From NCBI RefSeq assembly GCF_002754245.1, contig NZ_PEEX01000001.1, forward strand, positions 2,584,001 to 2,648,000: a stretch of DNA of 64,000 nt. Reading direction: 5' to 3'. The position numbers and the translations under genes were made by a program. Positions within the stretch are counted from its first letter, which is position 1. Every line of letters begins with the position of its first letter. A model generated the notes under the pieces. It saw only the letters and a program-made list of their open reading frames with translations. It had not been told where the DNA came from and searched no databases. This document shows positions 395 to 38,700 of the stretch, piece after piece. Source of the DNA: Chryseobacterium sp. 52 (GTDB taxonomy: Bacteria > Bacteroidota > Bacteroidia > Flavobacteriales > Weeksellaceae).

Positions 395-928
395 TTAAAC
401 ATTTTCGGGACTGCTGAAAAGACTAGGGGCAAAAAAGCCCTCGTAAACTTCATTCTTTTTGCGTATCTGCTCGGTGTATTCGGGATATTCCGAGGCCTTC
501 GGCATGGCAGTCCATGCTTCCTTATACCTGCCTTCTTTTTCAAGCTGCTCGGCTTTACTGATGGCATCTTTGTATTTTTTGTCTTTTGCCTCTTTTTCTT
601 TTTTCTCCCTGTCGGTTTTTTCCCTTTCCATTGCCGACTGTTTTCGGGCTTCTTCTAATTGTACCATAAAACCCTCCATATTGACCATAAGTCCTGATGC
701 AGTCTCTAATGGCATGGTAATTTTCTCAAAAAATTCGATGTCCAGTTTCTCGGCTGTCCCTCTCAATATCAAAGGGGGTATGGAATTTTTTGCAGTATCG
801 GTACACTGTTCATTTTCGAGCCATGCCAAAACGACCCAATTGTTTTCTGTTCCTTTTTTGACGGTGATTTGAAAATCCCCTGTAATATTCATTTGCTCTA
901 TCTGCCTGAAAAAATTAATCGTTTCCAT
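395..928 (-). CDS. PRTRC system protein E
   Basis: A 177-residue protein starting METINFFRQIEQMNITGDFQ. The N-terminal ~90 residues form the conserved PRTRC E domain, with phrases such as IPPLILRGTAEKLDIEFF. Residues ~95-135 are a highly charged coiled-coil segment rich in Glu and Lys, followed by a short tail. It is placed between the DUF932 gene and PRTRC C, the usual neighbourhood on Bacteroidetes mobile elements. Function is unknown; involvement in element maintenance is inferred only from context. Confidence 0.8.
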   Translation of the reverse strand: METINFFRQIEQMNITGDFQITVKKGTENNWVVLAWLENEQCTDTAKNSIPPLILRGTAEKLDIEFFEKITMPLETASGLMVNMEGFMVQLEEARKQSAMEREKTDREKKEKEAKDKKYKDAISKAEQLEKEGRYKEAWTAMPKASEYPEYTEQIRKKNEVYEGFFAPSLFSSPENV

Positions 929-3282: not shown

Positions 3283-6200
3283 ATGGATCAGGAGAATGAT
3301 CAACTATTAACCCTACTTTCCGTGCGATTGGTCAATATTCAAACCGCACAAACCGCAGGATCAGGAATCATATATTCGCATCCTACTTTACAGCAACAAG
3401 TTTATATCCTTACCGCTGCCCATTGCCTTTTTGAGGATCAGGATAATTTTGAGATACCAATGGAAGCAATAGAGTTATATTTCTTTAATGCGGAAAAACA
3501 GATTTACGAGACCTTAGTACATAAAATAAATTATAATCTAGTTTCGGCAGATATTGATCATGATGTGGCCGTTTTAGTCTTGAATTTGACTGAAGTCGAG
3601 TCTATTACAGGGAAATTGCCAACGGTCAACATGATCTTAAATAGAAATGCTCATACACAATTCGTTGCCAAAGGATTTCCAAGTGCCACTCGTGGAAAGG
3701 AAATTGTTTTTATCAGTCCCAGTTGGGTACAGCAGTTACCAGGTAAGGAACAGTTTCAACTACATATCAACCAAGATTTTAGTGACGCATATAATAGTAT
3801 TTACAGAATAGATGGCTTTTCAGGAGCTGGAATCTTTTTGTATGATCATCAACAGGTCTATCTATATGGGATATTTACCAGGTTCCTGGATGCAGGCAAG
3901 ATGGTATATTGCCAACCTTTGACTCAGTTCGAATCGATTATAAATGCAAATTATCTACCCCCCTTTTCATATACTTTCTTTGGAGCATATGGTGTATCTT
4001 CTGAATTTTTCCTTGCTAATGCAAAGAAATCAATTAAAGGGCTTGGGCCAAGATTTAATGCTGAACTTAATTTTCAGTTGCCTATATCTTTTTATTTTAA
4101 TGCTATCGCGAAGGATAGTTCATTTAAACAGATGTTGACTAAAATAGTGAATAATCAACTTACGGCATCTCTTTATGGTGCTGGAGGAGCCGACATGGAA
4201 GGAATTGAAGCACGCTACAATGAGCTTAATGATAGAATTAGAGGCTGGTATGATTCGATTACCTGGAGAACGGACGAACAGATTGTCATTAAAGACATTA
4301 TAGAAAAAATTAACCACTTTGAGACGGATGCTCAAAACAAACGAACAGAATTTTATCAAAAAAGACAGGAAAAAATCCAAGAGCAAGGTACGAACAGGAA
4401 GCAAAGCTATTATCCTGAGCCCTATGCTAGCGAAATCTCCCATCTCGGTCAAATGCTTAATAGTTTGTCAACTTTCACAGAAGCGTGTGATCAATGTCAT
4501 ATTGCGCTTTCAAATTATCCAGTATTGCTTATAAAAGGAGGTGCGGGTGCTGGAAAGTCCCACCTTTTGGGAGATATCTTGCAGAAAAGAAATGCAGAAG
4601 GTTTTCCTTCAGTACTCCTTCTTGGACAACTTTTTACTCCAGGGCAATCTGTATGGGATAATGTCCTTAATCAACTTGGACTGAGTTGCACCAGACAGGA
4701 ATTCCTGTCTACCCTCAATAGCATTGGTGAGCAGATTGGAACGCGAGTATTAATTATGGTCGATGCAATTAATGAAGGGGCTGGAAAAAAGCTCTGGCAT
4801 GATGCCATTGAAGGATTTATCCATGATTGCTTAGAATATCCTTCTATAGGTTTGGTAATCTCCATAAGAACAACATATTGGAAATCTATTATTCCGGAAA
4901 CACTTAATATGGAAAATCTGATTACTCAAACAGAGCATCATGGTTTTAAAGGAAATGAATACGAAGCAGTGAAGTTATTTTGCGAATTTTATGGGATACA
5001 GCAACCTAATTTTCCTCTCCTTAATCCCGAATATTCCAACCCATTATTTCTACATTTGATCTGCAAAGGAATCCAAGGGTCTACTCCAAAGATTTTTCCG
5101 CAGGGATTTCAAGGAATCACAAAGGTTTTTGGGTATTACCTGAAAGCAGTTAAAAATAAGCTGATTCAAAAACGGGATATTTATGAATATGCACCGAAAC
5201 TACTCATTAATGCATTAAATAGTTTTGCAAAGCATTGCTTTGAAAAAGACCGTAGATCAATGTCACTCTCAGAGGCTATTAAGCTTTTCGATGAACAGTA
5301 TTCTGGCTTTCCTCATCTTATTGGAGACCTAATCGAAGAGAGTGTACTTATAAGATCACTTTCGCGAGAATATGATTTTGAAGGAAAAGCTTATGAGGAA
5401 GAACAAGTCTATTTTGCTTATGAGCGTTTTGGAGACTTTTATATAGCGGGTGAGCTCATTAAGGATATCAAAACTAAGGAAGAAGCCCTTAAGAAGTTTG
5501 AAAAGGATGAACCACTTGGAAAGTTGATCGAGGATGGAGGATGGTACAATTCCGGAACACTCGAAGCGCTAGCAGTATTATTGCCGGAGAAATTTGATAT
5601 AGAGATATTCGAAGTGTATAATTGGGTATTTAAAGAAGAAAAAAAGAACCACCTATATAATGACCATTCTATACCTCATTGGTATTTGAACAGTCTAAGG
5701 TGGAGAACACTTGAGAGTATAGACAATAAGAAATTTATTAAGTGGGTGAAGACCACTAAGCAGTTTCGAATCAGCAATGAAGAATACTTTAATTTTCTCT
5801 ATGAAATGAGTGCTATTGAGGGGCACCCATTTAATAGTGATCGTATGACAGACATGTTCTTACGCTTTCCAATGCCAGAACGGGATGGGTTTATTCAGCA
5901 GTATTTTCTCTACTATAGTGGCAAGGATGATTCGGGGACGGCTATGCCTATTAATCGTCTTATAGATTGGGCGTGGCGGCCAGATATATCCAAACAGACG
6001 TCAAAGGAGACTGCAAGACTCGTCGCACAGGCACTTTGCTGGATACTCGGATCGACACATACTGCGCTCAGAGATCAGGCAACAAAGGCTATGGTAAATC
6101 TTCTTCAGGATCAAATACCTGCGTTGATTGAAGTATTCATAAAGTTAGTAAAGATCGATGATATCTATATTACAGAAAGACTCTGTGCAGTGGCATATGG

Positions 6201-8019
6201 TTGTGCCTTACGAGCCAAAAATACAGTAGATTTGCATCATCTTGCTCAAATAGTTTATGATAATATATTTAGAGATGAAAATCCCCCTACACATATATTA
6301 ATAAGGGATTATTGTCGTCATATTATTGAGCTTGCTATATATAAGGGAATTTCACTTGATATGCCGGTCCAAAATTTTAGACCACCTTATAATGCAAAGC
6401 TTCCCGAGCGATATCCTACAGAGGAAGAGCTGGAAGTTTTCAAAATAGGAAAGGATGAAAAAGGAGAGGTGGGGAATATTGCCCAGGCAAATAGCAAGGC
6501 TATTTTTTCAATATTAGGATGGGATTTTGGAAGATATACTATAGATTCTGCTGTACGAAATTTTGAATCCGTCCAGTTTAGCTTTGAAAATGATATTGAG
6601 GATTTTAGAAGAGGCTTGCGAAGAGGAGGAAAGGGAGCGTTTAAAAATGTGAAAGCATGTTATCCCATGTATGCTAAACCAAGAAGGAAACTAAGCGAAT
6701 ATAGTTTTGAAAATAAAGAAATAATTCAGAAATATTGGAATGGCGTCGATGAACTTTGGGAAATTTTTGAACAACGATTTATAAAACTGTTAAGTGATGA
6801 ACAAAAGTCCTTTTATCAAGAAAAACTTTTGCCTTATTGGGACCTCCAGATTAAAAACCAAAAAGATCGAGATCTTGAACTCAAGAGTAAACCTATTAAA
6901 ATCTGGATTGCCAAACGGGTATTTGAGCTTGGGTATGATGGGAAAGTCCACGGTTCATTTGATGGAAATAGGGACAGTTATGAAAGGAATGAAACCGCAA
7001 AGATTGAGCGTATCGGCAAAAAATATCAGTGGATTGCATTTTACCAAATTTTGGGAGTCCTCGCTGACAATTATAAGGTAAGGGATCTGTATGGTAGCGA
7101 TACTAAGAGTAGGTTTTATAATGGTCCGTGGGATGTTACTTATAGAGATATTGATCCATCTTTTACCTCTAGGATAGATCGTAATAAATACCCGGAGGAT
7201 GATTTTGGTATTGTGGAAGATAATCCTGAATGGTATTTGCCACCACGGTATATGCATTGGAATAAGCTACATGCAGATTGGGCGGATACAACAGCTGATC
7301 TTCCGAATTATGCTGAATGTATACAGAGAACAGACCAAAAAGGAGAAGAGTGGGTATATCTCTACTCATCTCATACATGGAAAGCACCAAAGGCGGTTGG
7401 CGAGAGTAGATCCCATTTTGATAGAAAGGAAATTTGGTTTATGTTTCAAAGCTTTTTGGTCCCCAAAGATAAATACCAAAGAACTGTTAAATGGTTACAG
7501 AATCAAGAGTTTCATGGTCGATGGCTACCAGAGGCATATGAGGTGAGTAATTTGGTGGCAAGAGAAGCTTACTGGTCTCCTTTGAGCAAACAATATGGGA
7601 AAGAACATGGTACATGGCGCACTTTAGAGGATTCTAATTTAAAAGTTATGTTGACATCTCTCGAGGCCATTGGCAGTTTAGAAGGTGACGATTCTGGAGC
7701 ACATTTCCATTATAAAATCCCAAATAAAAAAATGTTTGACAAGCTTGAATTCAGGTATGCGGATCATGATGGCGAACTTTTGGGGCCAACAGGGGAAGTA
7801 TTGTTTAGCAATATAAGCCCTTTAGGCCCTATGATCAGAAAAGATACGCTTGAAAAATTTCTAAGTGAAAACAACCTAGAGATTATTTGGACATTACTCG
7901 GAGAGAAAAATGCATTCTACAATAGAGAATTGGGACAGGATATTCGAAAATCTTTAAGTGGTGTTTTCGGTATGGAGGACAGAGAATTAAAAGGAACAAT
8001 TAAAATTACAGACTGGTAA
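3283..8019 (+). CDS. Trypsin-like protease / STAND NTPase fusion (type 1 AVAST-like)
   Basis: A 1578-residue cytosolic protein with no signal peptide. Residues ~10-230 form a trypsin-like serine protease with a complete triad: His47 in TAAHC, Asp94 in HDVAVL and Ser180 in GFSGAG. A P-loop NTPase follows, with Walker A GGAGAGKS (419-426) and Walker B ending VDAINE (Asp494). The remaining ~1000 residues are helical and repeat-like, probably a sensor region. N-terminal effector, STAND NTPase and long C-terminal sensor is the layout of Avs proteins, which bind conserved phage proteins, oligomerise and activate the effector. The start is the first ATG, 36 bases after a candidate promoter. The stop overlaps the next ATG by one base, so translation is coupled. 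Assignment to AVAST type 1 is from recalled architecture, not a search; the ligand is unknown. Confidence 0.8.
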   Translation: MDQENDQLLTLLSVRLVNIQTAQTAGSGIIYSHPTLQQQVYILTAAHCLFEDQDNFEIPMEAIELYFFNAEKQIYETLVHKINYNLVSADIDHDVAVLVLNLTEVESITGKLPTVNMILNRNAHTQFVAKGFPSATRGKEIVFISPSWVQQLPGKEQFQLHINQDFSDAYNSIYRIDGFSGAGIFLYDHQQVYLYGIFTRFLDAGKMVYCQPLTQFESIINANYLPPFSYTFFGAYGVSSEFFLANAKKSIKGLGPRFNAELNFQLPISFYFNAIAKDSSFKQMLTKIVNNQLTASLYGAGGADMEGIEARYNELNDRIRGWYDSITWRTDEQIVIKDIIEKINHFETDAQNKRTEFYQKRQEKIQEQGTNRKQSYYPEPYASEISHLGQMLNSLSTFTEACDQCHIALSNYPVLLIKGGAGAGKSHLLGDILQKRNAEGFPSVLLLGQLFTPGQSVWDNVLNQLGLSCTRQEFLSTLNSIGEQIGTRVLIMVDAINEGAGKKLWHDAIEGFIHDCLEYPSIGLVISIRTTYWKSIIPETLNMENLITQTEHHGFKGNEYEAVKLFCEFYGIQQPNFPLLNPEYSNPLFLHLICKGIQGSTPKIFPQGFQGITKVFGYYLKAVKNKLIQKRDIYEYAPKLLINALNSFAKHCFEKDRRSMSLSEAIKLFDEQYSGFPHLIGDLIEESVLIRSLSREYDFEGKAYEEEQVYFAYERFGDFYIAGELIKDIKTKEEALKKFEKDEPLGKLIEDGGWYNSGTLEALAVLLPEKFDIEIFEVYNWVFKEEKKNHLYNDHSIPHWYLNSLRWRTLESIDNKKFIKWVKTTKQFRISNEEYFNFLYEMSAIEGHPFNSDRMTDMFLRFPMPERDGFIQQYFLYYSGKDDSGTAMPINRLIDWAWRPDISKQTSKETARLVAQALCWILGSTHTALRDQATKAMVNLLQDQIPALIEVFIKLVKIDDIYITERLCAVAYGCALRAKNTVDLHHLAQIVYDNIFRDENPPTHILIRDYCRHIIELAIYKGISLDMPVQNFRPPYNAKLPERYPTEEELEVFKIGKDEKGEVGNIAQANSKAIFSILGWDFGRYTIDSAVRNFESVQFSFENDIEDFRRGLRRGGKGAFKNVKACYPMYAKPRRKLSEYSFENKEIIQKYWNGVDELWEIFEQRFIKLLSDEQKSFYQEKLLPYWDLQIKNQKDRDLELKSKPIKIWIAKRVFELGYDGKVHGSFDGNRDSYERNETAKIERIGKKYQWIAFYQILGVLADNYKVRDLYGSDTKSRFYNGPWDVTYRDIDPSFTSRIDRNKYPEDDFGIVEDNPEWYLPPRYMHWNKLHADWADTTADLPNYAECIQRTDQKGEEWVYLYSSHTWKAPKAVGESRSHFDRKEIWFMFQSFLVPKDKYQRTVKWLQNQEFHGRWLPEAYEVSNLVAREAYWSPLSKQYGKEHGTWRTLEDSNLKVMLTSLEAIGSLEGDDSGAHFHYKIPNKKMFDKLEFRYADHDGELLGPTGEVLFSNISPLGPMIRKDTLEKFLSENNLEIIWTLLGEKNAFYNRELGQDIRKSLSGVFGMEDRELKGTIKITDW

Positions 8020-9098
8020 TGAAATTATTTTGTTACAACGCAGGCTGCGGTGATGCTTTTAGAATTGAATTTAAAGGTAAAAGTGGAATAATCCGGCATA
8101 TACTATTAGACGCAGGCTACGAGAGAACCTTTCGCAATGTTCTTTCTAAAGATCTCAATGTAATCAAAAAACAAGGCCAGAATATTGATCTTTGTATTGC
8201 CACACATATTCATGATGATCATATTGGAGGGCTAAAGAGTTTGGTTAATGCAATAAATACTAATCGGGCAGATGATATGATTTTGCAATGGTGGTACAAC
8301 CCACCAAGAATAACTAATCTGAAGCTAAAGTCTTCAGAAGTAGAAAGCGTTGCCCAGAGCATCAGCCAGGCAGATGTAATAACCAGATACCTTAGTACGA
8401 AGTGTGTTTTAACCAAAGCTCCAATTGTCAGTAGTCCCCATCCATATCATCTGGATGGGATGGATATCTATATATTATCGCCAAATGAGCGAAGTCTTAA
8501 CAAATTGATTGATAAGTACCGTGATCCAAAAATAGCAATCGAGCCCATTGAAGATGACAAGGCCAGTCAAGCAATAGCCACAAAAACCAGAGACTACCAT
8601 ATTCCAGTAGGAGATTTCAATTTTCAAAAATGGAAGGAGGATAGAAATATAGAAAATGGAAGCAGCATAGCACTACTTACTAAATACGATGGGAAAACTA
8701 TTTTATGGCTAGCTGATGCGCATCCCAGTGTCGTGGTAGAGAGCCTTAAATCGTTAGGTTATTCCAATATCAATCCTCTTGAATGCGATTATGTTAAAAT
8801 AGCCCATCATGGAAGTTTAGGAAACAATAGCAGTGAATTATACCAAATGATTAAGTGCCAGAGATATATCCTCAGCAGTGATGGCTATAACCTTCATGGA
8901 CTACCAATGAAAGCATGTTTAGCCCAGATAGTTACAAACCCAGGAAGGTCAATCAATGATCATTATAGTTTTTACTTCACTGCTAGTGATGATGTCTTGA
9001 GGACTATATTTGAGGTTGATGGAGATAACGTCTACAAAAAGTTCAATTTTGAGATTATCTATCCAATTGATGGAAATGGCATGAGCATTCAATTTTGA
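8019..9098 (+). CDS. Metallo-beta-lactamase-fold hydrolase partner of the STAND protein
   Basis: A 359-residue protein overlapping the previous gene by one base. It has the metal-binding signature HIHDDH (His63, His65, Asp67, His68), a later WLADAH segment (around residue 230) and HHGS (263-266), as in the ComEC/Rec2-like branch of the metallo-beta-lactamase fold. All ligands look intact, so it is probably an active phosphodiesterase or nuclease. Metallo-beta-lactamase genes accompany protease-STAND genes in AVAST type 1 systems as I recall them, which is the main reason for the functional call. No signal peptide is seen, so it should act in the cytosol. Confidence 0.8.
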   Translation: MKLFCYNAGCGDAFRIEFKGKSGIIRHILLDAGYERTFRNVLSKDLNVIKKQGQNIDLCIATHIHDDHIGGLKSLVNAINTNRADDMILQWWYNPPRITNLKLKSSEVESVAQSISQADVITRYLSTKCVLTKAPIVSSPHPYHLDGMDIYILSPNERSLNKLIDKYRDPKIAIEPIEDDKASQAIATKTRDYHIPVGDFNFQKWKEDRNIENGSSIALLTKYDGKTILWLADAHPSVVVESLKSLGYSNINPLECDYVKIAHHGSLGNNSSELYQMIKCQRYILSSDGYNLHGLPMKACLAQIVTNPGRSINDHYSFYFTASDDVLRTIFEVDGDNVYKKFNFEIIYPIDGNGMSIQF

Positions 9099-9180
9099 TA
9101 GGAATATAAAAGCAATAGAAAACTTCCAAGGAATTAATATTGAAAACCAACATTTGATTTTAGGTTTAAGAGAATAATGC

Positions 9181-9282
9181 TGTAGTCTTGATAGCAAAGT
9201 CAAGTTGGAGTTGGTTACTAATAGGTTTTGGACATTTCAGGAAGATAACGGCCAATGGAAAATACTTAACCTGGTTGAATAG
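9181..9282 (+). pseudogene. C-terminal fragment of an unidentified gene
   Basis: An open stretch without a start codon, following a TAA, ends in the protein-like sequence NRFWTFQEDNGQWKILNLVE and a TAG at 9280. The aromatic-rich W-x-F...NGQW pattern looks like a genuine domain end rather than random translation. I cannot name the family. It lies among other decayed frames between the defence module and 10741. Confidence 0.35.
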
Positions 9283-9334
9283 TAGATATTCCAACGAAAG
9301 TAATTTATTTAGATGTTATTTGGTTTATAAACAC

Positions 9335-9679
9335 ATGGAAAAATCTGAAGAAAAATTTTGATTTTGGTTTTTTGAAAACCAGGATCATGTGTACGCAAAT
9401 ATTGAGAATAAAAGTTTTCAGCAAGAAATATTTGATAGCCGTAAAACGAAATTAAATGCTATCGATGAAAACCTAATTTTTGAATTTAGTCCCATTCATG
9501 AGAATGGAGTTAGGGAATTTTCAATCTCGGCAGATGGCATGACGGAGTCATTTGCGAATGTAAGGAAGTTGATAAAGTTGAGTCCCAATTTAGAAAACTG
9601 GAAGTTTAATGCTTTTAGACAGCGAGTGCCGAATGACAATTATATAGTCAAACCATTAGAAAAGGAAAGTATGATGTGA
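9335..9679 (+). pseudogene. Small conserved gene interrupted by a Trp-to-stop change
   Basis: An ATG at 9335 reads MEKSEEKF, then TGA (9359-9361), then FWFFENQDHVYANIE and on to 9679 in the same frame. The opening resembles flavobacterial proteins starting KFWxWF, so the TGA is most simply a mutated TGG (Trp). A GTG at 9389 could in principle restart a 96-residue product. The downstream part contains SPNLENWKFNAFRQRVP, a recognisable motif of an uncharacterised Bacteroidetes family, and then diverges into a short tail. I treat it as a dying gene. Confidence 0.5.
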
Positions 9680-9831
9680 CAGAATTCGTTTTCTTTCTAG
9701 TTGAACAAAAATTGGCAGATTTTATTACAGAATAGTTAAAGAATTAGTTATCAAAAAAAATAACCAATAAAATAATTCTATCAAACCATTATTTTACTAT
9801 CTTTAGTAGAGATATAAAAGCAAAAATTTAA

Positions 9832-10319
9832 CAGTCCTGTAAAAGTTTATATCTAGATACTGATATTAATGCTTCAGTTGAGACAAATTTGGAAGAATTG
9901 AAAAAACTTAATCCTGGAATTGCTCCGGCCTCTTTGACAGAGTTTGGTGCAAAAATCGATACTGCTTATTCGAAAATAGCAGGAAAGGAATTATCAATTG
10001 TGGGCAAATATTCACAATGGGGAATAGATCGAGACAGCATTGAAGCAATTATAGAGAATGTGGACTACACAGAATGTAAAAAATATTTAAAAGATCATCA
10101 ATACAGAATTATTCTTGCAATTGGTATGGTGTACTTCGATATATCATATGCAGAAAAAGTTTAGATAAAGTTGCTGCTGACTTACAAGTGCAAGCCACGT
10201 CATACGGCATTAGATTCTCATTTAAAAGAGAAGTTAGCAAAGACCTAAAAAAAATTACAAAAGGTTATTATCAGATTTTAGTTTGGAGGACAACAGGAAT
10301 TGATGATTTGAAATTATAG
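9832..10319 (+). pseudogene. Unidentified gene broken by a one-base deletion in an A-run
   Basis: The frame from 9832 has no ATG and continues to TAG at 10162 through the sequence NPGIAPASLTEFGAKIDTAY. At 10154-10158 (GAAAAAGT) a one-base shift leads into a second long frame, LDKVAADLQVQATSYGIRFS, ending at TAG 10317. Restoring one A joins them into a protein of about 160 residues. Both the 5' start and the internal frame are damaged. No family recognised. Confidence 0.5.
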
Positions 10320-10740
10320 CTATTGCTGACTGGGGCATTCGACAAAAGTAGCCACTTGTTTTCGCTCATTGGAGCCTGCTTTTTAGGCCTACACTATTCA
10401 CCAGGTGTTGCGGCAAAATGGCCATTCGGCTCATTTTCATTTTAAGCAGTTTTATATTTCTCCGAGGCGTGAGCAGATTAATATAGTTGTTTTGCGTAGA
10501 AATACTGAATTGGGGATGAGCTAATAGCCTTAAAATCGAAAACTATAAATCTTTTACTGAAGTAATTTTGATCGGGAGCATTTTATGTAAATCGGAGCCT
10601 AAATTCTGTTTTTAAGATACGATCAAGACTAGATGGTAAAAAACGGGGTGTACAGTTTGGAATGAGAATCACTGCAGATCTTTAACGAAATACCCAGCGA
10701 TGTGGTAAACAAGATATTTTATTTTAAAAATTTATAACCT
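10320..10740. other. Non-coding gap with probable element debris
   Basis: About 420 bases with no frame I can support. The first half (10330-10520) is noticeably richer in G and C than its neighbours and contains several short G+C-rich palindromic words such as AGGCCT, unlike ordinary spacer. It may be debris of another mobile element, but I recognise no transposase or terminal repeat in it. Confidence 0.3.
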
Positions 10741-12045
10741 ATGAATAACCCATTTGAAACCTTACTAGATGAAGTCATTACGAATGATTTTGGAGAAATC
10801 AGATTTAAGAATGCTGAACTTGAGATATTGAAAGTTGATGATTTTATAAAAAAGATTATTGATTTACATCTACGATCAACAAATCAAAAACCAATCATCA
10901 AATTAGAGAATTCCATTTCCATTGAAGATTCCCAAAAGCTGTATCGTCGAATGATTACGATATTTATGGCAACTTCTCAATATTTAGATTTAACAACAAG
11001 AATAGAATTACTGGATAAAATCATTACTCAGATTTATAAAAGAGGCAGCATAGAAGGATTTGAATCCGTTTTTCTCACGACATTGGAAGGTTGTCGCAAT
11101 GAGGTGGATGATAAAACTATAGAGTATTATTTCAATAAATTTGCTGTTTTCAACTGGCCTATGAATACAGGAGGTGGATTTAAAACCAGTTATTTTCTAG
11201 ACAGAAACTTTGCTGAATTAAATGCGATTCAGCCAGACTTTAAGATAGAATTCGAGAAATTAAAATATAATCTGAATTCATATTCTTCTTTTAAAGATAA
11301 ACTTCTTGCAAAGCGTGCTCAATACTACGGAATTTCTAAGTCAGAGTGTGTTGGATGGGCGATGGCGACTGGAATAGCTGTAGCTGCAGTATTTAAAGCG
11401 CCAAGATCAGCTGGCGCTACGGCAGGTGAAGTTATAGGCAATATTTTTTGTCCAGAAGATAAAGCCGAAGAGGACAAGCAGAAAGAAAAACCTGCAGATA
11501 AAGCTAAAGATAAGGGTAAGGAGAAAGCTAAGGAGAAGGAAGAACAAGAAAAAGAAAATGAAGATTTCATTGAAGTTGAAGTAGTAAAGGAAGACGCAAA
11601 AGAGGGTGGATGTATTTCACCATATGCTAATGATTTTCTAATATCAGATCCGTATGGTTCGATTATAAAGAGTGAGAAGCTTCATTCCGCTATCCCATAT
11701 GGTAAAGGTTTAAATAAGTATTTTGAGAAGAAAGATAATTTGTATCAATTTTTGAATTTGCCTAGAGTTGAGTTTAATTATGGAAAAATAAACACCAAAA
11801 AGTTGGGTTTTTTAAATAATTCTGAAAATTTCAAAAAAAGCATTTCAGATTTATTCGAATCACACAAATTAGAAATAAAGCCAGATTTAAAAAAAATGCA
11901 GTTACCCAAAAAAACTACTCAAAAAATAGATAAGCAGGACACATACACCAATTTTGGCAAAGATCACATGAAACCTGAAAAGATCGAAGTGCCAAAGGAT
12001 GTACCTGCCGATTTAACTATTGGGAAATTGGGAAAAGGAAAATAA
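10741..12045 (+). CDS. Uncharacterised island protein with a Lys/Glu-rich linker
   Basis: A 434-residue protein with an intact ATG-initiated frame, preceded by an A+T-rich leader. Residues ~1-200 are mainly helical. Residues ~205-235 are small and hydrophobic (GWAMATGIAVAAVFKAPRSA), possibly a membrane-interacting segment. Residues ~240-275 are a low-complexity run of Lys, Glu and Asp. The C-terminal ~150 residues are basic and Pro/Lys-rich. I do not recognise the family. It lies between the AVAST-like module and a DUF6236-like gene inside the element end, so a cargo or defence role is possible but unproven. Confidence 0.7.
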   Translation: MNNPFETLLDEVITNDFGEIRFKNAELEILKVDDFIKKIIDLHLRSTNQKPIIKLENSISIEDSQKLYRRMITIFMATSQYLDLTTRIELLDKIITQIYKRGSIEGFESVFLTTLEGCRNEVDDKTIEYYFNKFAVFNWPMNTGGGFKTSYFLDRNFAELNAIQPDFKIEFEKLKYNLNSYSSFKDKLLAKRAQYYGISKSECVGWAMATGIAVAAVFKAPRSAGATAGEVIGNIFCPEDKAEEDKQKEKPADKAKDKGKEKAKEKEEQEKENEDFIEVEVVKEDAKEGGCISPYANDFLISDPYGSIIKSEKLHSAIPYGKGLNKYFEKKDNLYQFLNLPRVEFNYGKINTKKLGFLNNSENFKKSISDLFESHKLEIKPDLKKMQLPKKTTQKIDKQDTYTNFGKDHMKPEKIEVPKDVPADLTIGKLGKGK

Positions 12046-12213
12046 TACAGCAATATTAATTAATATATGCCACCAACATTCTAATGAAGTGCCAATGAAA
12101 TACCTTATTATATTCGAAACAGCTGATTCACTGGAAACTCCACTATGACTTTTTAATTAAATTTTAATATATAAATCAATTTTTGTATTTGAATTATAAA
12201 TCTCTCTCAAAAA

Positions 12214-13245
12214 ATGGAAAGAACACTCTTATATTATCCGACTATTGATATTCCAAATATGAAATGGTTATACAGTAGCATATTTTACTCTGATAAAGTT
12301 TCTTCAATTGTGCCTTTTCATAACATTGATGATAGGCGTTTCCCTGACAATCTAAAATACTTGGTTGATCAGGAACAATATAAGCCGATTTTTATAGAAA
12401 GGCTTTTAAGTTCATATACTGTCGAATTTAGGGAGTTTGAAGAATTCTTTATTTCAACTACAAGCTCTGACGAATTTAAAAAGACTTTAAATAATGAAAG
12501 TAGTCTCTCTTATAATCAATATGATACACTTTATGGTGGAAAAATGACCCATAGAATTAATCAATATATGAGAGAAACAGGGCTCATTAAAAGTGTCAAT
12601 GGAGATATTTATGTTACAGATGAAGTCGTCTCGCTGTTTTATATGAGTTTGTTAGCACAGTATGTCACAAAGATAATTAAAGACGACTATATTATCCCTT
12701 CTACTGACGACAGGAGATATCAAGATATTGGTTTTAATAGCTCTCAACAGAAAGAACCTGTTATGAATTTTATCATGGAGAATTGTTTACCGACTCCTGT
12801 TGAAAATACGCCTATAAAAAATATTATTAAATTTAAAAAGGAGAGAAGGGATGAACTTTTAGAGTTTCGGAAGTATTTGAGCAGAGTGCAGGAAAAAATC
12901 AGAAAGGCAACAGAAGAAGAAGAGATAAGAGCAATTCAAATGGACACATCCGAAAATATTGAAAAAGGAATAAATGATTTAAGTAGACTTTGCCAAGAAA
13001 ATAGTATTAAGACATTTTTTACTTCTTTTGAAAGTCTTCTAAAGTTAGACAGTCCTAAACTTTTTAAAACACTAACTTTAAGTGGTGCAATAACAACTCC
13101 ATTGTATCCTATACTGGGAGTTATTTCAGGTTTAATTGGTGTGAGCGGAGGAATTGCATCTTCATATTTTTCAAATAGGCGTGAAATTGATAAATCAGAA
13201 CTTGCATATCTATTTAAAGCAAGACAAGAAGGTATAATAAATTAA
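12214..13245 (+). CDS. DUF6236-like protein with a C-terminal membrane hairpin
   Basis: A 343-residue protein starting MERTLLYYPTIDIPNMKWLY, with DKVSSIVPF soon after. This LYYP...W...YSD...SIVP opening is how I remember the DUF6236 family, whose function is unknown and which often sits in variable or defence-rich islands. Residues ~285-320 (ITTPLYPILGVISGLIGVSG) are hydrophobic and glycine-rich, consistent with membrane contact. It is 168 bases downstream of the 10741 gene on the same strand and is followed by a hairpin terminator. It is the last intact gene before the putative attachment site. Confidence 0.65.
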   Translation: MERTLLYYPTIDIPNMKWLYSSIFYSDKVSSIVPFHNIDDRRFPDNLKYLVDQEQYKPIFIERLLSSYTVEFREFEEFFISTTSSDEFKKTLNNESSLSYNQYDTLYGGKMTHRINQYMRETGLIKSVNGDIYVTDEVVSLFYMSLLAQYVTKIIKDDYIIPSTDDRRYQDIGFNSSQQKEPVMNFIMENCLPTPVENTPIKNIIKFKKERRDELLEFRKYLSRVQEKIRKATEEEEIRAIQMDTSENIEKGINDLSRLCQENSIKTFFTSFESLLKLDSPKLFKTLTLSGAITTPLYPILGVISGLIGVSGGIASSYFSNRREIDKSELAYLFKARQEGIIN

Positions 13246-13556: not shown

Positions 13557-13583
13557 GGAGGTTCGAATCCCTCTCTCTCCGCA
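13557..13583 (+). other. Attachment-site copy: 3' end of a tRNA-Ser gene
   Basis: The core GGTTCGAATCCCTC at 13559-13572 is a T-arm half with the invariant TTCGAAT loop. It is followed directly by TCTCTCCGC, a 3' acceptor strand as in serine tRNAs beginning GGAGAGA. No 5' half, anticodon arm or variable arm precedes it, and the upstream T-stem strand pairs imperfectly, so this is only a 3' fragment. Such fragments are made when an element integrates into a tRNA 3' end. Orientation implies the intact tRNA is to the left, outside the window, with the element between. Confidence 0.65.
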
Positions 13584-13886: not shown

Positions 13887-14173
13887 TTTATATACGGTAT
13901 AATATTCTCTTAGGAGTACTCAAAATTTATCTCACAAAGCAATCATATACTGTCTATTGCCTTTAATGGTATATCCTAAATTACTTTACTATTCATGAAA
14001 GTTTTTTATTAAGTATCTAATTCATAAATAAAGAATTATATTAGCGACAAATCTAACGAAATGCGGATATAGGTTTTTTTTCACAGAGTTCTTATATCTT
14101 TTGTTTCGTGAAAAATAATTTTAGACGTCATTTTGTATAACCAAAAAACGAAAAATATTAATTAAAAAAAACT

Positions 14174-32260: not shown

Positions 32261-34348
32261 ATGTTTCAAGAAGAAAAGAATCTGTCTAAGAAGGGACTGG
32301 ATTCGTCTAAAATAGATATAGCAGGAACTATTGGGGAAGCAGCCCAGATTAAAGATTCCCAAAAGATAGCATCACAAATAAAAACCGTAAGTGATACGGC
32401 TCAAAGCTTTATGAATAAGCCTTTGCAGCAAAATGCCCCAACGGTTGTCGAAAATAAAGTATGGGCAAAACAACCCACCTCAAACATTTTTAACGCCGCA
32501 GCAATACCGGAAAATGCTATTGCAGGAATAAACCGGGTAGTTAAACTTGAAATTTTTGTTGAAGGGAAACAGATCAAATTTTTCAAACATTTTAAACTCG
32601 TTCAAAGCGCAGTTAAACACCATGAATTTGATCTCACCCTTGCTCACGATACCCTTGGAAGCGCTGAAAATCATAACCTGGAAGAAGCCCAGAGCTTTCT
32701 GGGAAAAAGAATTACCGTTGTCTTCAAATATAAAGACGTAGAAGAAGGCCCTGAGAGAAACTTTGTAGGAGTCATTACGCAGGTTGGATTTGATCAGGAT
32801 AAAGGAAGCCTCGGAAATATCATCCTTACAGGTTATAGTCCTACCAAGCTGCTGGATTCTGCTCCTCATACCCAAAGCTTTGGAGGGAAGCAGGAAATAA
32901 GCCTTAACAATATTGCTGACCACGTCATAAAAGAAGGCCTGGGAGCCAGCAAATTTGATGTCAGAGTAGACTCGCAATATGGAAATATTTCCTATAGCTC
33001 TCAGTATGATGAAACCCATTACAATTATTTGTCAAGAATGGCTGAGGCCTATGGAGAACAGTTTTTTTATGACGGTGAAGTGCTGCATTTCGGAAAACTG
33101 CCCCCTCAGCAAAAACCTGTAAAACTTATTTACGGAAGCAGCGTAGCTGATGTCAAGATCAAAATGAAAGCCCAGCATGTGAAACCTTCTTTTTACGGAT
33201 ATAACAGCAGTAAAAATGAAAAACTAACTACAGGAAGTTCAAAAATTAACCATACCTCAGATATTGCCAGGCGGGCTTACGAGATCTCAGAAAAGACATT
33301 TATAACTCCATCATTGAGCATAGCCCCCATAAAGGCATCCAAAGTAATGGACATTGATGCATCTCAGAAAGGAGCCGCAGGAAGTAATTCGGTGGATGTT
33401 TTTACGACTTCCGGAACGACTTCGGTTCCTTTTCTATATCCGGGATGTACTGCTGATATCGAAATGCGTAAACCAGACACTAATGAAACCTCTTATTTTA
33501 CAAAACTCATGATGACAGAAGTTAGCCATGAGGTAGATGCAAGAGGATATTATACAGGAACTTTTGAAGCCATTGCTGCCGATACCGGATTTATGCCGAG
33601 ACCAGACTTCCATTATCCTAAAGCAGAGCCACAATTTGCAAAGATCATTTCAAATACAGACCCTTTAAACCAGGGACGTGTGCAGGTACAGTTCGACTGG
33701 CAGAATGGTCCTGATACCACAGAATTTATCCGGGTAATGACTCCCGATGGAGGAAGCAGCGATAAAGTAAGTAAAAACCGGGGATTTATGGCCATCCCTG
33801 AAGTAGATGACCAGATAATGATCAATTTTGTCCACCAGCATCCGGACCGTCCTTTTGTAATGGGCGGAATGTTTCATGGTGGAGCAGGAGGCGGAGGCGG
33901 ACAGGGCAATAACATCAAAAGCCTTAGCAGTAAAAGCGGTCATACCGTAAGTCTTGACGATGCCGGTGCCATAACAATAAGAGACAAATCAGGAGGAAAT
34001 GTAATCACAGTAGATGGTACGAATACCATTTCCGCAGTAGCCAGTAAGAAAATTTCACTGGACAACGGAAAATCATCAATTGTTATTGAAGATGAAACGA
34101 TTACCATTCATGCTAAAAATATTAATATCGTGGCTGATACCATTGTTTCTATGGGAAGTGGTAAAGCAGGAATAGAATTGAGTTCAAAAGAGAATGTCGC
34201 AGCTTTAAGCGGGGTTACAGTCACGACCTCCGGAAGCAAAGAAGTTCAGATTACCGGAAAAGAAACAAGCATCAGTGGAAACAAAATTTCGATGAGCGGA
34301 GAGGGGGAAACGATAATTACAGGCGGTTTAGTAAAACTGAATTCATAA
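32261..34348 (+). CDS. vgrG: Type VI secretion spike protein VgrG
   Basis: A 695-residue VgrG. After a low-complexity N-terminus (~1-90), the gp27-like region runs to ~430 (VVKLEIFVEGKQIKFFKHFK, YLSRMAEAYGEQFFYDGEVL). The gp5 OB-fold follows (DPLNQGRVQVQFDW, FMAIPEVDDQIMINFVHQHP, RPFVMGGMFHGGAGGGGG), and then a repetitive beta-helix needle to the C-terminus. It forms the tip of the contractile T6SS and carries effectors out of the cell. Its stop overlaps the next gene (TAATG), so it opens the effector operon. No tube, sheath or membrane-complex genes are in the window. Confidence 0.93.
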   Translation: MFQEEKNLSKKGLDSSKIDIAGTIGEAAQIKDSQKIASQIKTVSDTAQSFMNKPLQQNAPTVVENKVWAKQPTSNIFNAAAIPENAIAGINRVVKLEIFVEGKQIKFFKHFKLVQSAVKHHEFDLTLAHDTLGSAENHNLEEAQSFLGKRITVVFKYKDVEEGPERNFVGVITQVGFDQDKGSLGNIILTGYSPTKLLDSAPHTQSFGGKQEISLNNIADHVIKEGLGASKFDVRVDSQYGNISYSSQYDETHYNYLSRMAEAYGEQFFYDGEVLHFGKLPPQQKPVKLIYGSSVADVKIKMKAQHVKPSFYGYNSSKNEKLTTGSSKINHTSDIARRAYEISEKTFITPSLSIAPIKASKVMDIDASQKGAAGSNSVDVFTTSGTTSVPFLYPGCTADIEMRKPDTNETSYFTKLMMTEVSHEVDARGYYTGTFEAIAADTGFMPRPDFHYPKAEPQFAKIISNTDPLNQGRVQVQFDWQNGPDTTEFIRVMTPDGGSSDKVSKNRGFMAIPEVDDQIMINFVHQHPDRPFVMGGMFHGGAGGGGGQGNNIKSLSSKSGHTVSLDDAGAITIRDKSGGNVITVDGTNTISAVASKKISLDNGKSSIVIEDETITIHAKNINIVADTIVSMGSGKAGIELSSKENVAALSGVTVTTSGSKEVQITGKETSISGNKISMSGEGETIITGGLVKLNS

Positions 34349-35742
34349 TGATGGATACCTCTTCAATAGCACAGGAATATTATAAACTTAAAGATTTATG
34401 GTCTGCCGCCGAAAAAAAACCGTCATGGAAACTGGCTGTTTGGGTAGCACAGTATGCAGATGTGGAAATCATCGATAAGTTTATGCAGATTGAACAGTCT
34501 CCCGTAGGAGAATCCGATGATATTTTTTTTCGTTTCGAGACAGAATATAAAGGAGACAGACCATTGTTTGAAGAACAGTTATGGAATGAATTTCTGACAT
34601 GGTTTACCCCACATCCCGAAAAAGGTAAAGACCTTCACCGGGCACTTTGGGAGAATAAGATGATAAAAGAACCCTTTGCTCCGGATAACCAGTTACCAGC
34701 CAATGCAGACAGTCTGTTTAGTGAACTGGAACGCCTTAAGAGCAGCATCACAGATCAGAGTGATCACTTTTATTTCTGTCTGTATTTTCCCCTGGCGGTC
34801 CAGAACAAACAGAATATTGCACACTGGTTTCAACAGGTCATTGAAACAGTTCCGGATGATCTTCGTCTTGTAACAATGGATCTCGCGGAAGAAAGACGTA
34901 TTGAATTACAGGGTAAAAAGAACAGTGAGCCTCTTTACCACTACTTATATCCAAAACTCAAAATGGCAGAAGCCATTAAAAATGAGATGTATAAAGCAAG
35001 TGACAGCTATAATACCGTAGATCCCGATGCCAGATTCAGGAAACAGGTTATTGTAGTCATGGACTCTACAACAAAGAAAATACAAAACCGAACGAATACA
35101 GAAGTAAAACGCCTTTTGGATATCACAAAGGAAATTGGCACTGTATCTTCAAAAATTGCAGGTTTACTGGTTGCTTCACAAGCTTATTTTGCCATACAAA
35201 ACACTAAAAAAAGCGAAGAATATACAGATAAAGCCCTTGAAGAATCCTCAAAAGCAATGGAAGATGATGATGCAACAGGTTATCCGGTATGGAAATCCTG
35301 TATGCTTCTAAAAGCAGCTTTACTATACGGAAACAAAAAAAGGGATGCTGCCTTATTGATGTATCAGGACTTATCAGAAAAAGCATCCAAACGTCAGGAT
35401 GTATATTATATGATGGAAGCCAATAGGTTGATAGCCCATATTTATTATGAAAAAAATGACTTGCAGAAGGCCTTTGAGAATGTACTGTTTTCATTGGCAG
35501 CCGGAGCTTATTTGGATATCAGTGTAAGAAGACAGTCTACTTTTTTACATGCAGCATTTATGGCCCTTTATTTAGGCGGACAGATCAAAACAGCCGAAGA
35601 AGTAAAGGAAATAAAACTGCAGCTGGCAGATTGGTTAGGGGACGACTGGGAAATCTTATTATCTCAGGCTGGCGTTGATTCGGCTTCGTTAAAAATGGAA
35701 CAGTCAGTTTGGAAAGAGCAATTATCAAAATTTAAAAACTAA
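34348..35742 (+). CDS. Helical repeat protein between VgrG and Rhs, candidate T6SS effector adaptor
   Basis: A 464-residue cytosolic protein that overlaps the vgrG stop by one base and ends 3 bases before the Rhs gene. The C-terminal half carries TPR-like helical pairs (e.g. KSCMLLKAALLYGNKKRDAA, MEANRLIAHIYYEKNDLQKA). The N-terminal half is helical and acidic, with WLGDDWE-type aromatic clusters near the end. I recognise no catalytic motif. Genes in this position usually encode chaperones or adaptors that load the effector on VgrG, and that is the most likely role here, inferred from position alone. Confidence 0.7.
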   Translation: MMDTSSIAQEYYKLKDLWSAAEKKPSWKLAVWVAQYADVEIIDKFMQIEQSPVGESDDIFFRFETEYKGDRPLFEEQLWNEFLTWFTPHPEKGKDLHRALWENKMIKEPFAPDNQLPANADSLFSELERLKSSITDQSDHFYFCLYFPLAVQNKQNIAHWFQQVIETVPDDLRLVTMDLAEERRIELQGKKNSEPLYHYLYPKLKMAEAIKNEMYKASDSYNTVDPDARFRKQVIVVMDSTTKKIQNRTNTEVKRLLDITKEIGTVSSKIAGLLVASQAYFAIQNTKKSEEYTDKALEESSKAMEDDDATGYPVWKSCMLLKAALLYGNKKRDAALLMYQDLSEKASKRQDVYYMMEANRLIAHIYYEKNDLQKAFENVLFSLAAGAYLDISVRRQSTFLHAAFMALYLGGQIKTAEEVKEIKLQLADWLGDDWEILLSQAGVDSASLKMEQSVWKEQLSKFKN

Positions 35743-35745
35743 CCT

Positions 35746-38700
35746 ATGTCAGATTTAATAGGAAAAGTAGCAACATCACCAGCCCCCAGGAGAGGATTTG
35801 GTGAACTTTTTGGAGAAGCCAAAAACAAACTGGATCATTTACAGAAAGATATGGCCAGCATTTTACCGGCCATGCCGGGTATGCCTGTAGGAAAATATTT
35901 TGATCTTGCGATTGGTATCGATTTTCACGAAACCATTTTCCCGCCAATGCCTTTATTGCCGGTACCCCATATCGGGATGGTTTTTGATATTATGAGTGCC
36001 ATAATGAACGCCATTTCAAGTGTATTGCCTGAGCCTCCCGCTCCTCCTGCAGATGGTTCTGAACCACCTACGAGCTTAACTTCTATTTGCACGGCGATTG
36101 TAAACGGGATGAAACCGTCTGTTCAGGTTCATGGACAATGGGTTGCTAATGCAGGGACGGGAATTCAGCATTTACCGGGGATTTTCTTACATATTCCCTT
36201 TCCTGTAGTAAAACCTATTGCAAGCTCTGAAATGTTTCTGGGAAGCAGCACGGTTTTAGCAGATGGCGGACCATGCAGCACCCAGTTTCACCTTGCGTTG
36301 TCATGTAATCTGATAGGAATTCCGGCACCTTTCCGGATTACAAAGCCAAAACCAAAGGTAGCTTTAATGGCGCCCACTTCCATGCTGTTAATTATTACAT
36401 CAGCCGGGAAACCTGTGCTCGCAGGTGGCCCGCCAACCATCGATCTTTTTCAGCTGGCCATGAGCCTGGGATTAAAAGGAATGGGAAAATTATGGAAAAA
36501 GGCAGGGAATAAACTACAGGACTTCATCCACAGAATTGAACCCAAAAACCCCAAACTGGCAAAAGTTTTACAACCCGTAAAATGCCGTCTGTTTGGTGAA
36601 CCTGTAGATGCAGCTACCGGAAGAGTATATTCTACAAATACCGATATTGAACTGCCGGGACCAATCCCTTTTATATGGCAACGTACCTACTACAGTGATG
36701 CTGAAGCAAACGGACCTTTAGGTTTTAACTGGCATCACAGTTATAATATGGGGCTTTATGATTTAGGAAATGATTTCGCTTCCTTACGTTTGTCAGACGG
36801 GAGGGAAACGGTAGTTCCGCTGATAGATCTCGGAGAAAAATATTTTAACAGACAAGAACAGTTAACCTTTAGTAAAGATGAAAAGGGGTATTTATTAACA
36901 GATTCTAATAAATTACAATATCGATTTAATGGGGCATTGAATCAGGAAGGCTACAGAATGCTTTCTTCAATAGCTACAGCAGATGGATTTAAAATAAGTT
37001 TAGACTATCATTCCAACGGTTGTTTAAAGAAAATAACAGACAGTACGGGCAAAATAATAAAGGTAGAAAATGATTCTGATTACCGAATTACCCGTTTATA
37101 TACTGTTGCCGAAAACAGGGAGATCACCTATATCCAATACAGATATGATGAATCGGGAAACATGGTCTATAATAAAGACGTAATCGGTGCAGAAAAACAT
37201 TTCCGGTATCATGGCCATTTGCTAGTTCAGCTTACGAACCAAACCGGCCAGAATTTTTATTGGGAATATGAAGGAGCAGGAGATGATGCAAAATGTATCC
37301 ATACCTGGGGAGATGGAGGTGTGCTTGAATATTTTACAGAATATAATCCGGGACACACCATTACCCGAAACAGTTTAGGTTTTACCGCAGAATATTTTTA
37401 TGATGAACGCAAACTGATCTATAAGATAATAGACGAAAACGGAGGAATTACCCATCAGAAATACAATCAGTATCAGGATCTTGAGCTAATCATTAATGCG
37501 GAAGGCTTAACACAAAAATACCTGTATACTGAAAACGGGTTATTGAAAACGGTAGAAAACGAAAATAACGGTCAGAGCCAGTTTCAATATGATGATGCTT
37601 TTAATTTAATCAAAATGACGAGTCCCGGCGGTGCAGAAATAGAATGGACCTATGACGAATTCCACCGGATTGTACAAAAGAAGCTTCCTTCAGGTGAAAA
37701 GCTGTACTATCAGTATGAAGATATGCACCTCAGAACAATTACAGACAATAAAAAACGGGCCGTCCACTTCTTCTATGATCAGTCGCATCATCTGGTACAG
37801 ATGATTTATCCCAATGAAACCTATAGCAAATGGGATTATGATGAATCGGGAAATGTAACAAGTGAGCGTGATCCAAGGGGGAATTTAACGTTTTATAAGT
37901 ACGATGATGCCGGAAATGTGATCTACTTAAAAGAAGCTGACGGAAACGAGCATTATTTCGAATATGATACCTCGTACAATATTATTCATGCGAAGGATGA
38001 CTTACATGATGTACGGTTCAGGTATGGCAGTTTAGGGATTTTACTGAGCCGGACACAGAACAACCGTACCGTGAAATTCGGATATGATGCGGAATTACAG
38101 TTAAAAAGTATCAGCAATGAAAAAGGTGAAGTATATCGCTTTGCGCTGGACGGAGTAGGTGATGTGATCAGTGAATGGGGATTTGACGGATTGCACCGTC
38201 AGTATGAACGGGATGCAATAGGCAGAGTGAAAAAAGTAGTCCGCCCGGACAACCGCTGGACAGAATATGACTATGATGGCATTGGAAATATCATTGCCGA
38301 ACAGCACAGTGACCTTTCATTTACAGGATACATTTACAATAAAGACGGATTTTTAATCGGTGGACTCAATCAGGATATCAGCATAAAAATACAGCGCGGA
38401 AAAGATGGCCGCATCATTAAAGAACAACAGGGGCAGCATTGGATAAGTAAAACGGTTGATAAGGAAAAGAACTCTTTATTGACACAGAGCTCATTAGGAG
38501 CAGATATTACCAGCCAGTATGATCATTTCGGACAACTCAATACATTAGAAAGTGGTAGCTGGAAAGCCCAATGGCAATACGATGCCACAGGACTTGAAAT
38601 ACAGCGCGATCTTACCGGCGGTATTAGTCAGGTCACAGAACATGATCAGCAGGGCAGAGTGGTTCGTCGAAGCATCAACAGTCATAATGTGGAGAAAAAC

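What the first reader, a model, noticed from the sequence alone, without database searches (positions are those of the whole stretch)
3283..9098. Two-gene protease-STAND plus metallo-beta-lactamase module resembling type 1 AVAST
Seen: an intact trypsin triad (His47, Asp94, Ser180), intact Walker A and B motifs, a ~1000-residue repeat-like C-terminus and a translationally coupled MBL gene with all metal ligands. Known: Avs proteins are STAND NTPases that recognise conserved phage proteins through C-terminal repeats, and protease-STAND with MBL is, as I recall, the type 1 layout. Inferred: this is a functional defence system at the end of a mobile element. The phage trigger and the protease target are open questions. 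The MBL could be the toxic nuclease released or activated by proteolysis.
Basis: partly seen in the sequence, partly recalled or inferred. Interest (0 to 1): 0.78.

Follow-up and report, generated by a model that had tools for sequence, protein, structure and literature searches.

The report
Type 2 AVAST with protease-nuclease cassette
This is a two-gene bacterial anti-virus alarm in which a virus-sensing protein carries a protease that probably switches on a partner DNA-cutting enzyme; the principle is known, but here it sits on a sensor family that usually carries other effectors.

Summary
In detail: ORF 3283-8019 (1578 aa) has an intact trypsin triad and Walker motifs and overlaps by one base a 359-aa metallo-beta-lactamase (MBL) gene with its metal ligands. 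The type 1 label is wrong. The sensor is Avs2 (type 2): NCBIfam Avs2 1376.7 bits, cut-off 1000; PADLOC Avs2 2362 bits, full length. No Avs1b or Avs1c match; the MBL scores 172.6 against an Avs1a cut-off of 420; gene order is reversed. The effector logic is that of type 1. Of 80 Avs2-like loci, 22 of 22 with trypsin have an adjacent MBL, against 0 of 39 scorable without; 18 truncated, 1 dropped. The MBL is modelled as a ComEC-like fold with two disordered loops, as in the gated pro-nucleases published in 2025 (PMC12799240). Most likely, phage sensing activates the protease, which cuts the loops and frees a DNase; this is inferred. New relative to that paper's main text: recurrent coupling to Avs2, nuclease downstream, and joint change of protease loops and nuclease cut sites in the window's lineage. 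It rides a conjugative element of about 100.8 kb.

The parts
3283..8019 (+). Avs2-family protease-STAND gene (1578 aa)
   Evidence: PADLOC Avs2 PDLC02163 2362.1 bits, residues 1-1578; NCBIfam NF041813 1376.7 bits, cut-off 1000
3283..3966 (+). N-terminal trypsin-like protease domain, residues 1-228; His47 at 3421-3423, Asp94 at 3562-3564, Ser180 at 3820-3822
   Evidence: triad conserved in 119 of 119; codons checked; weak Pfam trypsin matches under the cut-offs
3787..3807 (+). lineage-specific 5-residue insertion (169-173) and Arg175 next to the catalytic Ser, probably protease specificity loop
   Evidence: present in 14 of 51 compared proteases; link to the S1 pocket from recalled chymotrypsin numbering
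4537..4560 (+). Walker A, K425 at 4555-4557
4762..4776 (+). Walker B region DAINE, D494 to E498
5080..8016 (+). C-terminal Avs2 region, probable phage sensor
   Evidence: aligned with NF041813 (residues 251-1571) and with 9o4e; sensing inferred from other Avs
8017..8021 (+). TAATG stop-start overlap of the two genes
8019..9098 (+). MBL-fold gene (359 aa), probable gated pro-nuclease
8310..8378 (+). gating loop 1 of the MBL, residues 98-120 (disordered 102-114)
   Evidence: pLDDT under 50 at 102-114; [IV]-S at 109-110 in 86 of 122 homologues, window has E109-S110
8520..8654 (+). gating loop 2 of the MBL, residues 168-212 (disordered 183-186)
   Evidence: pLDDT under 50 at 183-186; [IV]-S at 182-183 in 100 of 122 homologues, window has A182-S183
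13560..13582 (+). right end (attR) of the integrated conjugative element: 23-base exact copy of the 3' end of tRNA-Ser(TGA)
395..928 (-). PRTRC system protein E gene of the same element
   Evidence: Pfam PRTRC_E 225.2 bits

Best explanation
A type 2 AVAST (Avs2) defence system in which a trypsin-like protease stands where other Avs2 proteins carry another N-terminal domain, with a separate gated MBL pro-nuclease gene directly downstream. Mechanism: (1) the Avs2 C-terminal region binds a conserved phage protein (inferred; large terminase is the reported target of other Avs2); (2) the NTPase oligomerises (inferred from other Avs); (3) the gathered protease domains become active (inferred from HamA-protease); (4) they cut one or both disordered loops by the MBL active site (loops: shown by prediction; cutting: inferred from HamM and Avs1a); (5) the freed ComEC-like MBL degrades DNA and stops the infected cell (inferred). 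In the window's lineage the protease specificity loops and the nuclease cut sites have probably changed together.
For: Avs2 family scores. MBL adjacent in 22 of 22 trypsin-Avs2 and 0 of 39 scorable other Avs2-like loci of an 80-locus scan, 18 truncated and 1 dropped; 0 of 10 further Avs2-like loci without trypsin. MBL downstream at -104 to +13 bases in 20 of 20 window-type loci. No third shared gene within 4 kb. Only the two loop segments are disordered in the model; ComEC-like fold. [IV]-S motif in both loops in 82 of 122 homologues. Distances of MBL and trypsin domain correlate, r = 0.84, 0 of 2000 permutations as high. Experiments on HamMAB and Avs1 in PMC12799240.
Against: No experiment on Avs2 of this type was found. 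The window's own MBL lacks Ile at both consensus positions (E109, A182), so the published Ile rule is not met there. An orphan MBL relative (43% identity) exists without an Avs2 within the 18 kb read. The association rests on few independent gains: 4 of 4 independent pairs agree, p = 0.125. The main text of PMC12799240 does not mention Avs2.
Confidence: 0.72

Rival explanations
1. The pair works by proteolysis, but the MBL is not a loop-gated DNase: the protease has other cell targets and the MBL hydrolyses another substrate, both acting side by side.
For: The window's MBL lacks the consensus Ile at both presumed cut sites; MBL folds serve many substrates, and phosphorylcholine esterase and RNase J also rank high in the structure list.
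Confidence: 0.15
2. The window's copy is partly decayed: the protease no longer matches the nuclease's cut sites.
For: E109 and A182 in place of I or V.
Against: No stop or frameshift; triad, Walker motifs and ligands intact; the same kind of change occurs across a lineage whose protease loops also differ (3 of 14 against 30 of 37 at 109; 6 of 14 against 34 of 37 at 182), which points to joint change.
Confidence: 0.07
3. It is a type 1 AVAST system (Avs1a-Avs1b-Avs1c), as first proposed.
For: Protease-STAND and MBL are the type 1 parts; the MBL has a sub-threshold Avs1a match (172.6 bits).
Against: Avs2 equivalog over cut-off; no Avs1b match at E <= 10 (PADLOC) or E <= 1 (NCBIfam); Avs1a cut-off 420 not reached; reverse order; no Avs1c match in the two small downstream ORFs.
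Confidence: 0.02
4. An ordinary single-gene Avs2 with an unrelated MBL gene beside it by chance.
For: The 39 scorable non-trypsin Avs2-like loci have no MBL.
Against: 22 of 22 trypsin-Avs2 loci have it, at close distance in 20 of 20 window-type loci; L046 and L051, inside the wider clade, lack both trypsin and MBL.
Confidence: 0.02

Closest known systems
AVAST type 2 (Avs2), NCBIfam NF041813, solved structure 9o4e
   Same: STAND NTPase and C-terminal region over most of the protein
   Different: 9o4e matches only from profile position 232 on; other Avs2-like proteins seen here have a D...QxK nuclease-like or other N-terminus and no MBL gene
AVAST type 1 (Avs1a-Avs1b-Avs1c)
   Same: trypsin-like protease fused to a STAND protein plus an MBL gene; mechanism shown for Erwinia Avs1 in PMC12799240
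   Different: other sensor, MBL upstream, third gene avs1c; window MBL below the Avs1a cut-off
Nuclease-protease pairs of Hachiman (HamMAB), Lamassu and DRT (PMC12799240)
   Same: N-terminal trypsin fused to a defence protein, separate ComEC-like MBL with two disordered loops
   Different: other sensors; nuclease 'typically upstream' in the paper, downstream here; Ile at the cut sites there, E109 and A182 here
L071 (Bacteroidia MAG) and L102 (Ignatzschineria cameli) Avs2 loci
   Same: Avs2 over cut-off (1276.5 and 1278.8 bits) with N-terminal trypsin and an MBL
   Different: Avs1b-like trypsin, Avs1a-like MBL (349.7 and 447.4 bits, cut-off 420), MBL upstream; other places on the Avs2 tree

Membership tests
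AVAST type 2 (Avs2) | Avs2 equivalog model NF041813 over its curated cut-off of 1000 bits | tested here: met
   1376.7 bits, residues 251-1571
AVAST type 2 (Avs2) | intact STAND NTPase motifs | tested here: met
   Walker A and B invariant in 32 aligned sequences
AVAST type 2 (Avs2) | recognition of phage large terminase (reported for Avs2 in PMC12724215, passage) | not testable with these tools
   needs phage assays
AVAST type 1 | Avs1a MBL over its cut-off of 420 bits | tested here: not met
   172.6 bits
AVAST type 1 | Avs1b protease-STAND model | tested here: not met
   no match listed at E <= 10 in PADLOC or E <= 1 in NCBIfam
AVAST type 1 | Avs1c gene beside the pair | tested here: not met
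   no Avs1c match for the two small downstream ORFs 9389-9679 and 9889-10164; no third gene shared with related loci
[quoted passage not shown]
Nuclease-protease pair (PMC12799240) | ComEC-like MBL with two disordered insertions at the active site | tested here: met
Nuclease-protease pair (PMC12799240) | conserved Ile cut site in each loop | tested here: inconclusive
   family: [IV]-S in both loops in 82 of 122; window: E109-S110 and A182-S183, other Ile nearby
Nuclease-protease pair (PMC12799240) | proteolysis turns the MBL into a DNase | not testable with these tools
   needs biochemistry
Nuclease-protease pair (PMC12799240) | nuclease gene typically upstream | tested here: not met
   downstream in the window and in 20 of 20 window-type loci; stated as typical, not as defining
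Lamassu (LmuA effectors) | protease/MBL effectors in a Lamassu system (LmuB partner, recalled) | tested here: not met
   both enzymes match LmuA models (80.7 and 254.6 bits), but the fused partner is Avs2 and no other PADLOC match was found among the 6 proteins scanned

The most novel reading that the evidence does not exclude
The protease-nuclease cassette is a plug-in that takes the place of the built-in effector of AVAST sensors in general: gained at least three times by Avs2 and also by an Avs4-like sensor. The window's lineage holds a re-keyed version, in which the protease specificity loops and the cut sites of the nuclease have changed together, so that its protease would not activate the Ile-type nucleases of sister lineages.
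Probability: 0.4. Interest if true: 0.65.

Novelty: new variant of a known kind. Interest (0 to 1): 0.5.

Why it matters
If true, the published gated-nuclease principle is not tied to type 1 AVAST: the cassette recurs on Avs2, and in one locus on an Avs4-like sensor. Because related Avs2 proteins with and without the cassette exist in one clade, what the cassette adds over another effector becomes testable. The joint change of protease loops and nuclease cut sites offers a natural lock-and-key series for asking how such pairs stay specific.

Tried and rejected
Type 1 membership was rejected on family scores, gene order and the missing Avs1c match. A Lamassu reading was rejected because the fused sensor is Avs2. 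A third module gene was sought in 20 related loci and the window and not found; the largest shared neighbour group, in 4 loci, includes integrases (3 of its 4 members scanned). Phage carriage: 9 Avs2 relatives in the viral collection, all matching from residue 208 or later; their N-termini were not read. Plasmid carriage: the 10 listed of 74 plasmid records match from residue 232 or later. A promoter and terminator scan was at chance level. Internal repeats of the C-terminal region were not found. A clean empty site of the element was not shown: congener G680 has a 21-base copy of the same end, and no tRNA was found in the stretch read.

Searches of the paper library for an Avs2 with this cassette. 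Among what they listed only PMC12799240 treats the cassette; its main text has no 'Avs2' or 'Avs4'.

Full report
What is there. ORF 3283-8019 encodes 1578 aa and ORF 8019-9098 encodes 359 aa, both on the + strand, sharing one base in TAATG. The first has His47, Asp94 and Ser180 in a trypsin-like domain, kept in 119 of 119 aligned relatives, and intact Walker motifs. The second has HIHDDH and the further ligands, nearly invariant in 122 aligned homologues.

What family. The large protein matches PADLOC Avs2 over its whole length (2362.1 bits) and the NCBIfam Avs2 equivalog at 1376.7 bits, cut-off 1000. No Avs1b match was listed. The MBL reaches 172.6 bits for Avs1a, cut-off 420, and its best PADLOC match is the LmuA-type MBL (254.6 bits). 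Three type 1 loci on plasmids have the order avs1a, a large protease gene (5733-5820 bases), avs1c. The window has the reverse order, and its two small downstream ORFs do not match Avs1c. It is Avs2 with a type-1-like effector pair. One Avs2 structure is solved, 9o4e; it matches from profile position 232 on, that is, without the protease.

Survey. They are Avs2 relatives by tblastn; I did not test each against the Avs2 cut-off. With HMMs for the trypsin, STAND, MBL and nuclease-like parts, 20 loci have the window-type trypsin, and all 20 have the MBL directly downstream, -104 to +13 bases by first-start ORFs. Two more, L071 and L102, have a divergent trypsin with the MBL upstream. I saw these by eye after the MBL hit had drawn attention to them; NCBIfam supports it by Avs1b matches to their first 195-221 residues. 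Of the remaining loci, 39 have at least 1.3 kb on both sides and no MBL; 18 are truncated; one (L099, split frame) was dropped. To guard against hidden trypsins I read 20 N-termini without seeing a trypsin motif; these include 18 of the 23 tree rows labelled 'other'. Of the other five, L081 and L105 have the nuclease-like domain in a separate frame and L050, L076 and L094 begin at a contig edge. In a separate sample of 395 genomes of the phylum, 11 have an Avs2-like match, 5 of them over the cut-off. The 10 other than the window have a D...QxK nuclease-like N-terminus (motif seen by eye; L016 and L018 gave no Pfam match), no trypsin and no MBL in the 14-19 kb read. The reverse search found MBL relatives in 4 of 395 genomes: the window's own, an Avs4-like trypsin locus (L112; NCBIfam Avs4 672.8 bits, under its cut-off of 1500), an LmuA-like trypsin locus (L113) and an orphan (L111).

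History. On a FastTree of the STAND part (86 rows) the window lies in a starred set of 8 trypsin rows. L071 and L102 join rows without trypsin elsewhere, with starred support, so trypsin was gained at least three times unless many losses are assumed; several branches are long and letter make-up is uneven. Inside the window's wider clade L046 and L051 have another N-terminus and no MBL, as if both had been lost or exchanged together. Independent pairs agree in 4 of 4, p = 0.125, too few to settle it. Over 51 pairs, distances of MBL and trypsin domain correlate (r = 0.84), as do MBL and STAND (0.82) and trypsin and STAND (0.89), 0 of 2000 permutations as high; the unit has travelled largely together.

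Against it. The window's own MBL has E109 and A182 and is one of the 18 with neither motif. It keeps S110, A112, S183 and A185. Similar changes run through its lineage, and there the protease differs too: a 5-residue insertion at 169-173, two residues fewer after 202, and R, Q, M, E or K at 175, against A, S, N or T in 35 of 37 others. Among 51 pairs, [IV] at 109 occurs in 3 of 14 long-loop and 30 of 37 short-loop pairs (Fisher p = 1.4e-4), at 182 in 6 of 14 and 34 of 37 (p = 5.2e-4); at control position 115 in 13 of 14 and 37 of 37 (p = 0.27). By recalled chymotrypsin numbering these loops flank the S1 pocket. This points to re-keyed specificity rather than decay, without proving it.

Setting. 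Conjugation genes TraG, TraJ and TraM, and PRTRC genes B, E and ThiF, lie to the left. A tRNA-Ser(TGA) gene and a tyrosine integrase lie at G000:C1:2496723-2498622, and a 23-base exact copy of the tRNA end lies at window 13560-13582. The element is thus about 100.8 kb, with the Avs2-MBL pair about 4.5 kb from its right end. Similarity to three congeners resumes at 13984, 15491 and 16184. Much of the element was not annotated, and no clean empty site was shown. Selected neighbours of five related loci were scanned: integrases by L031, L034 and L041, a relaxase by L033, TraG by L038. In the 395-genome sample none of the six congeners listed has an Avs2-like match, in keeping with recent gain.

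Trigger. Avs1-3 are reported to sense the large terminase subunit, and a Klebsiella Avs2 also Ksap1 (passages of PMC12724215, and PMC12931631). That this Avs2 does so is inference.

Verdict. A genuine, probably functional defence module: Avs2 by membership, working most likely like the known nuclease-protease pairs. It is a new variant of a known kind.

Noticed in passing
L112 (G262:C3), 7100-12971: MBL upstream of a 1621-aa protein with an N-terminal trypsin and an Avs4-like remainder (NCBIfam Avs4 672.8 bits, cut-off 1500; PADLOC Avs4 619.8): the cassette on a third AVAST sensor type.
   Followed up: partly
L119, Runella slithyformis plasmid pRUNSL03, 8947-14104: MBL upstream of a 1363-aa protein with trypsin, TPR and PIN-TPR-GreABC domains: possibly another host for the cassette.
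   Followed up: partly
L120, Haliscomenobacter hydrossis plasmid pHALHY01, 8977-14980: MBL homologue upstream of a 1655-aa protein with weak nSTAND/AAA matches, annotated as hypothetical.
   Followed up: partly
L111 (G122:C93), 8414-9484: Orphan relative of the window MBL (43% identity) with a shortened second loop and no Avs2 in the 18 kb read.
   Followed up: partly
L054, L056, L057, L062, L064, L065, N-termini: Avs2-like proteins with further N-terminal types; some show hydrophobic stretches suggestive of membrane segments; the two tested (L054, L056) had no Pfam match.
   Followed up: no
10741-13245: Two cargo genes between the Avs2-MBL pair and the element's end: a 434-aa protein without a family match over cut-off, and a DUF6236 protein.
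   Followed up: no
32261-40077: Outside the element: VgrG-like protein (Phage_base_V, Phage_GPD), a 464-aa gene without a match and a large RHS-repeat protein, like a secretion-system effector cassette.
   Followed up: no
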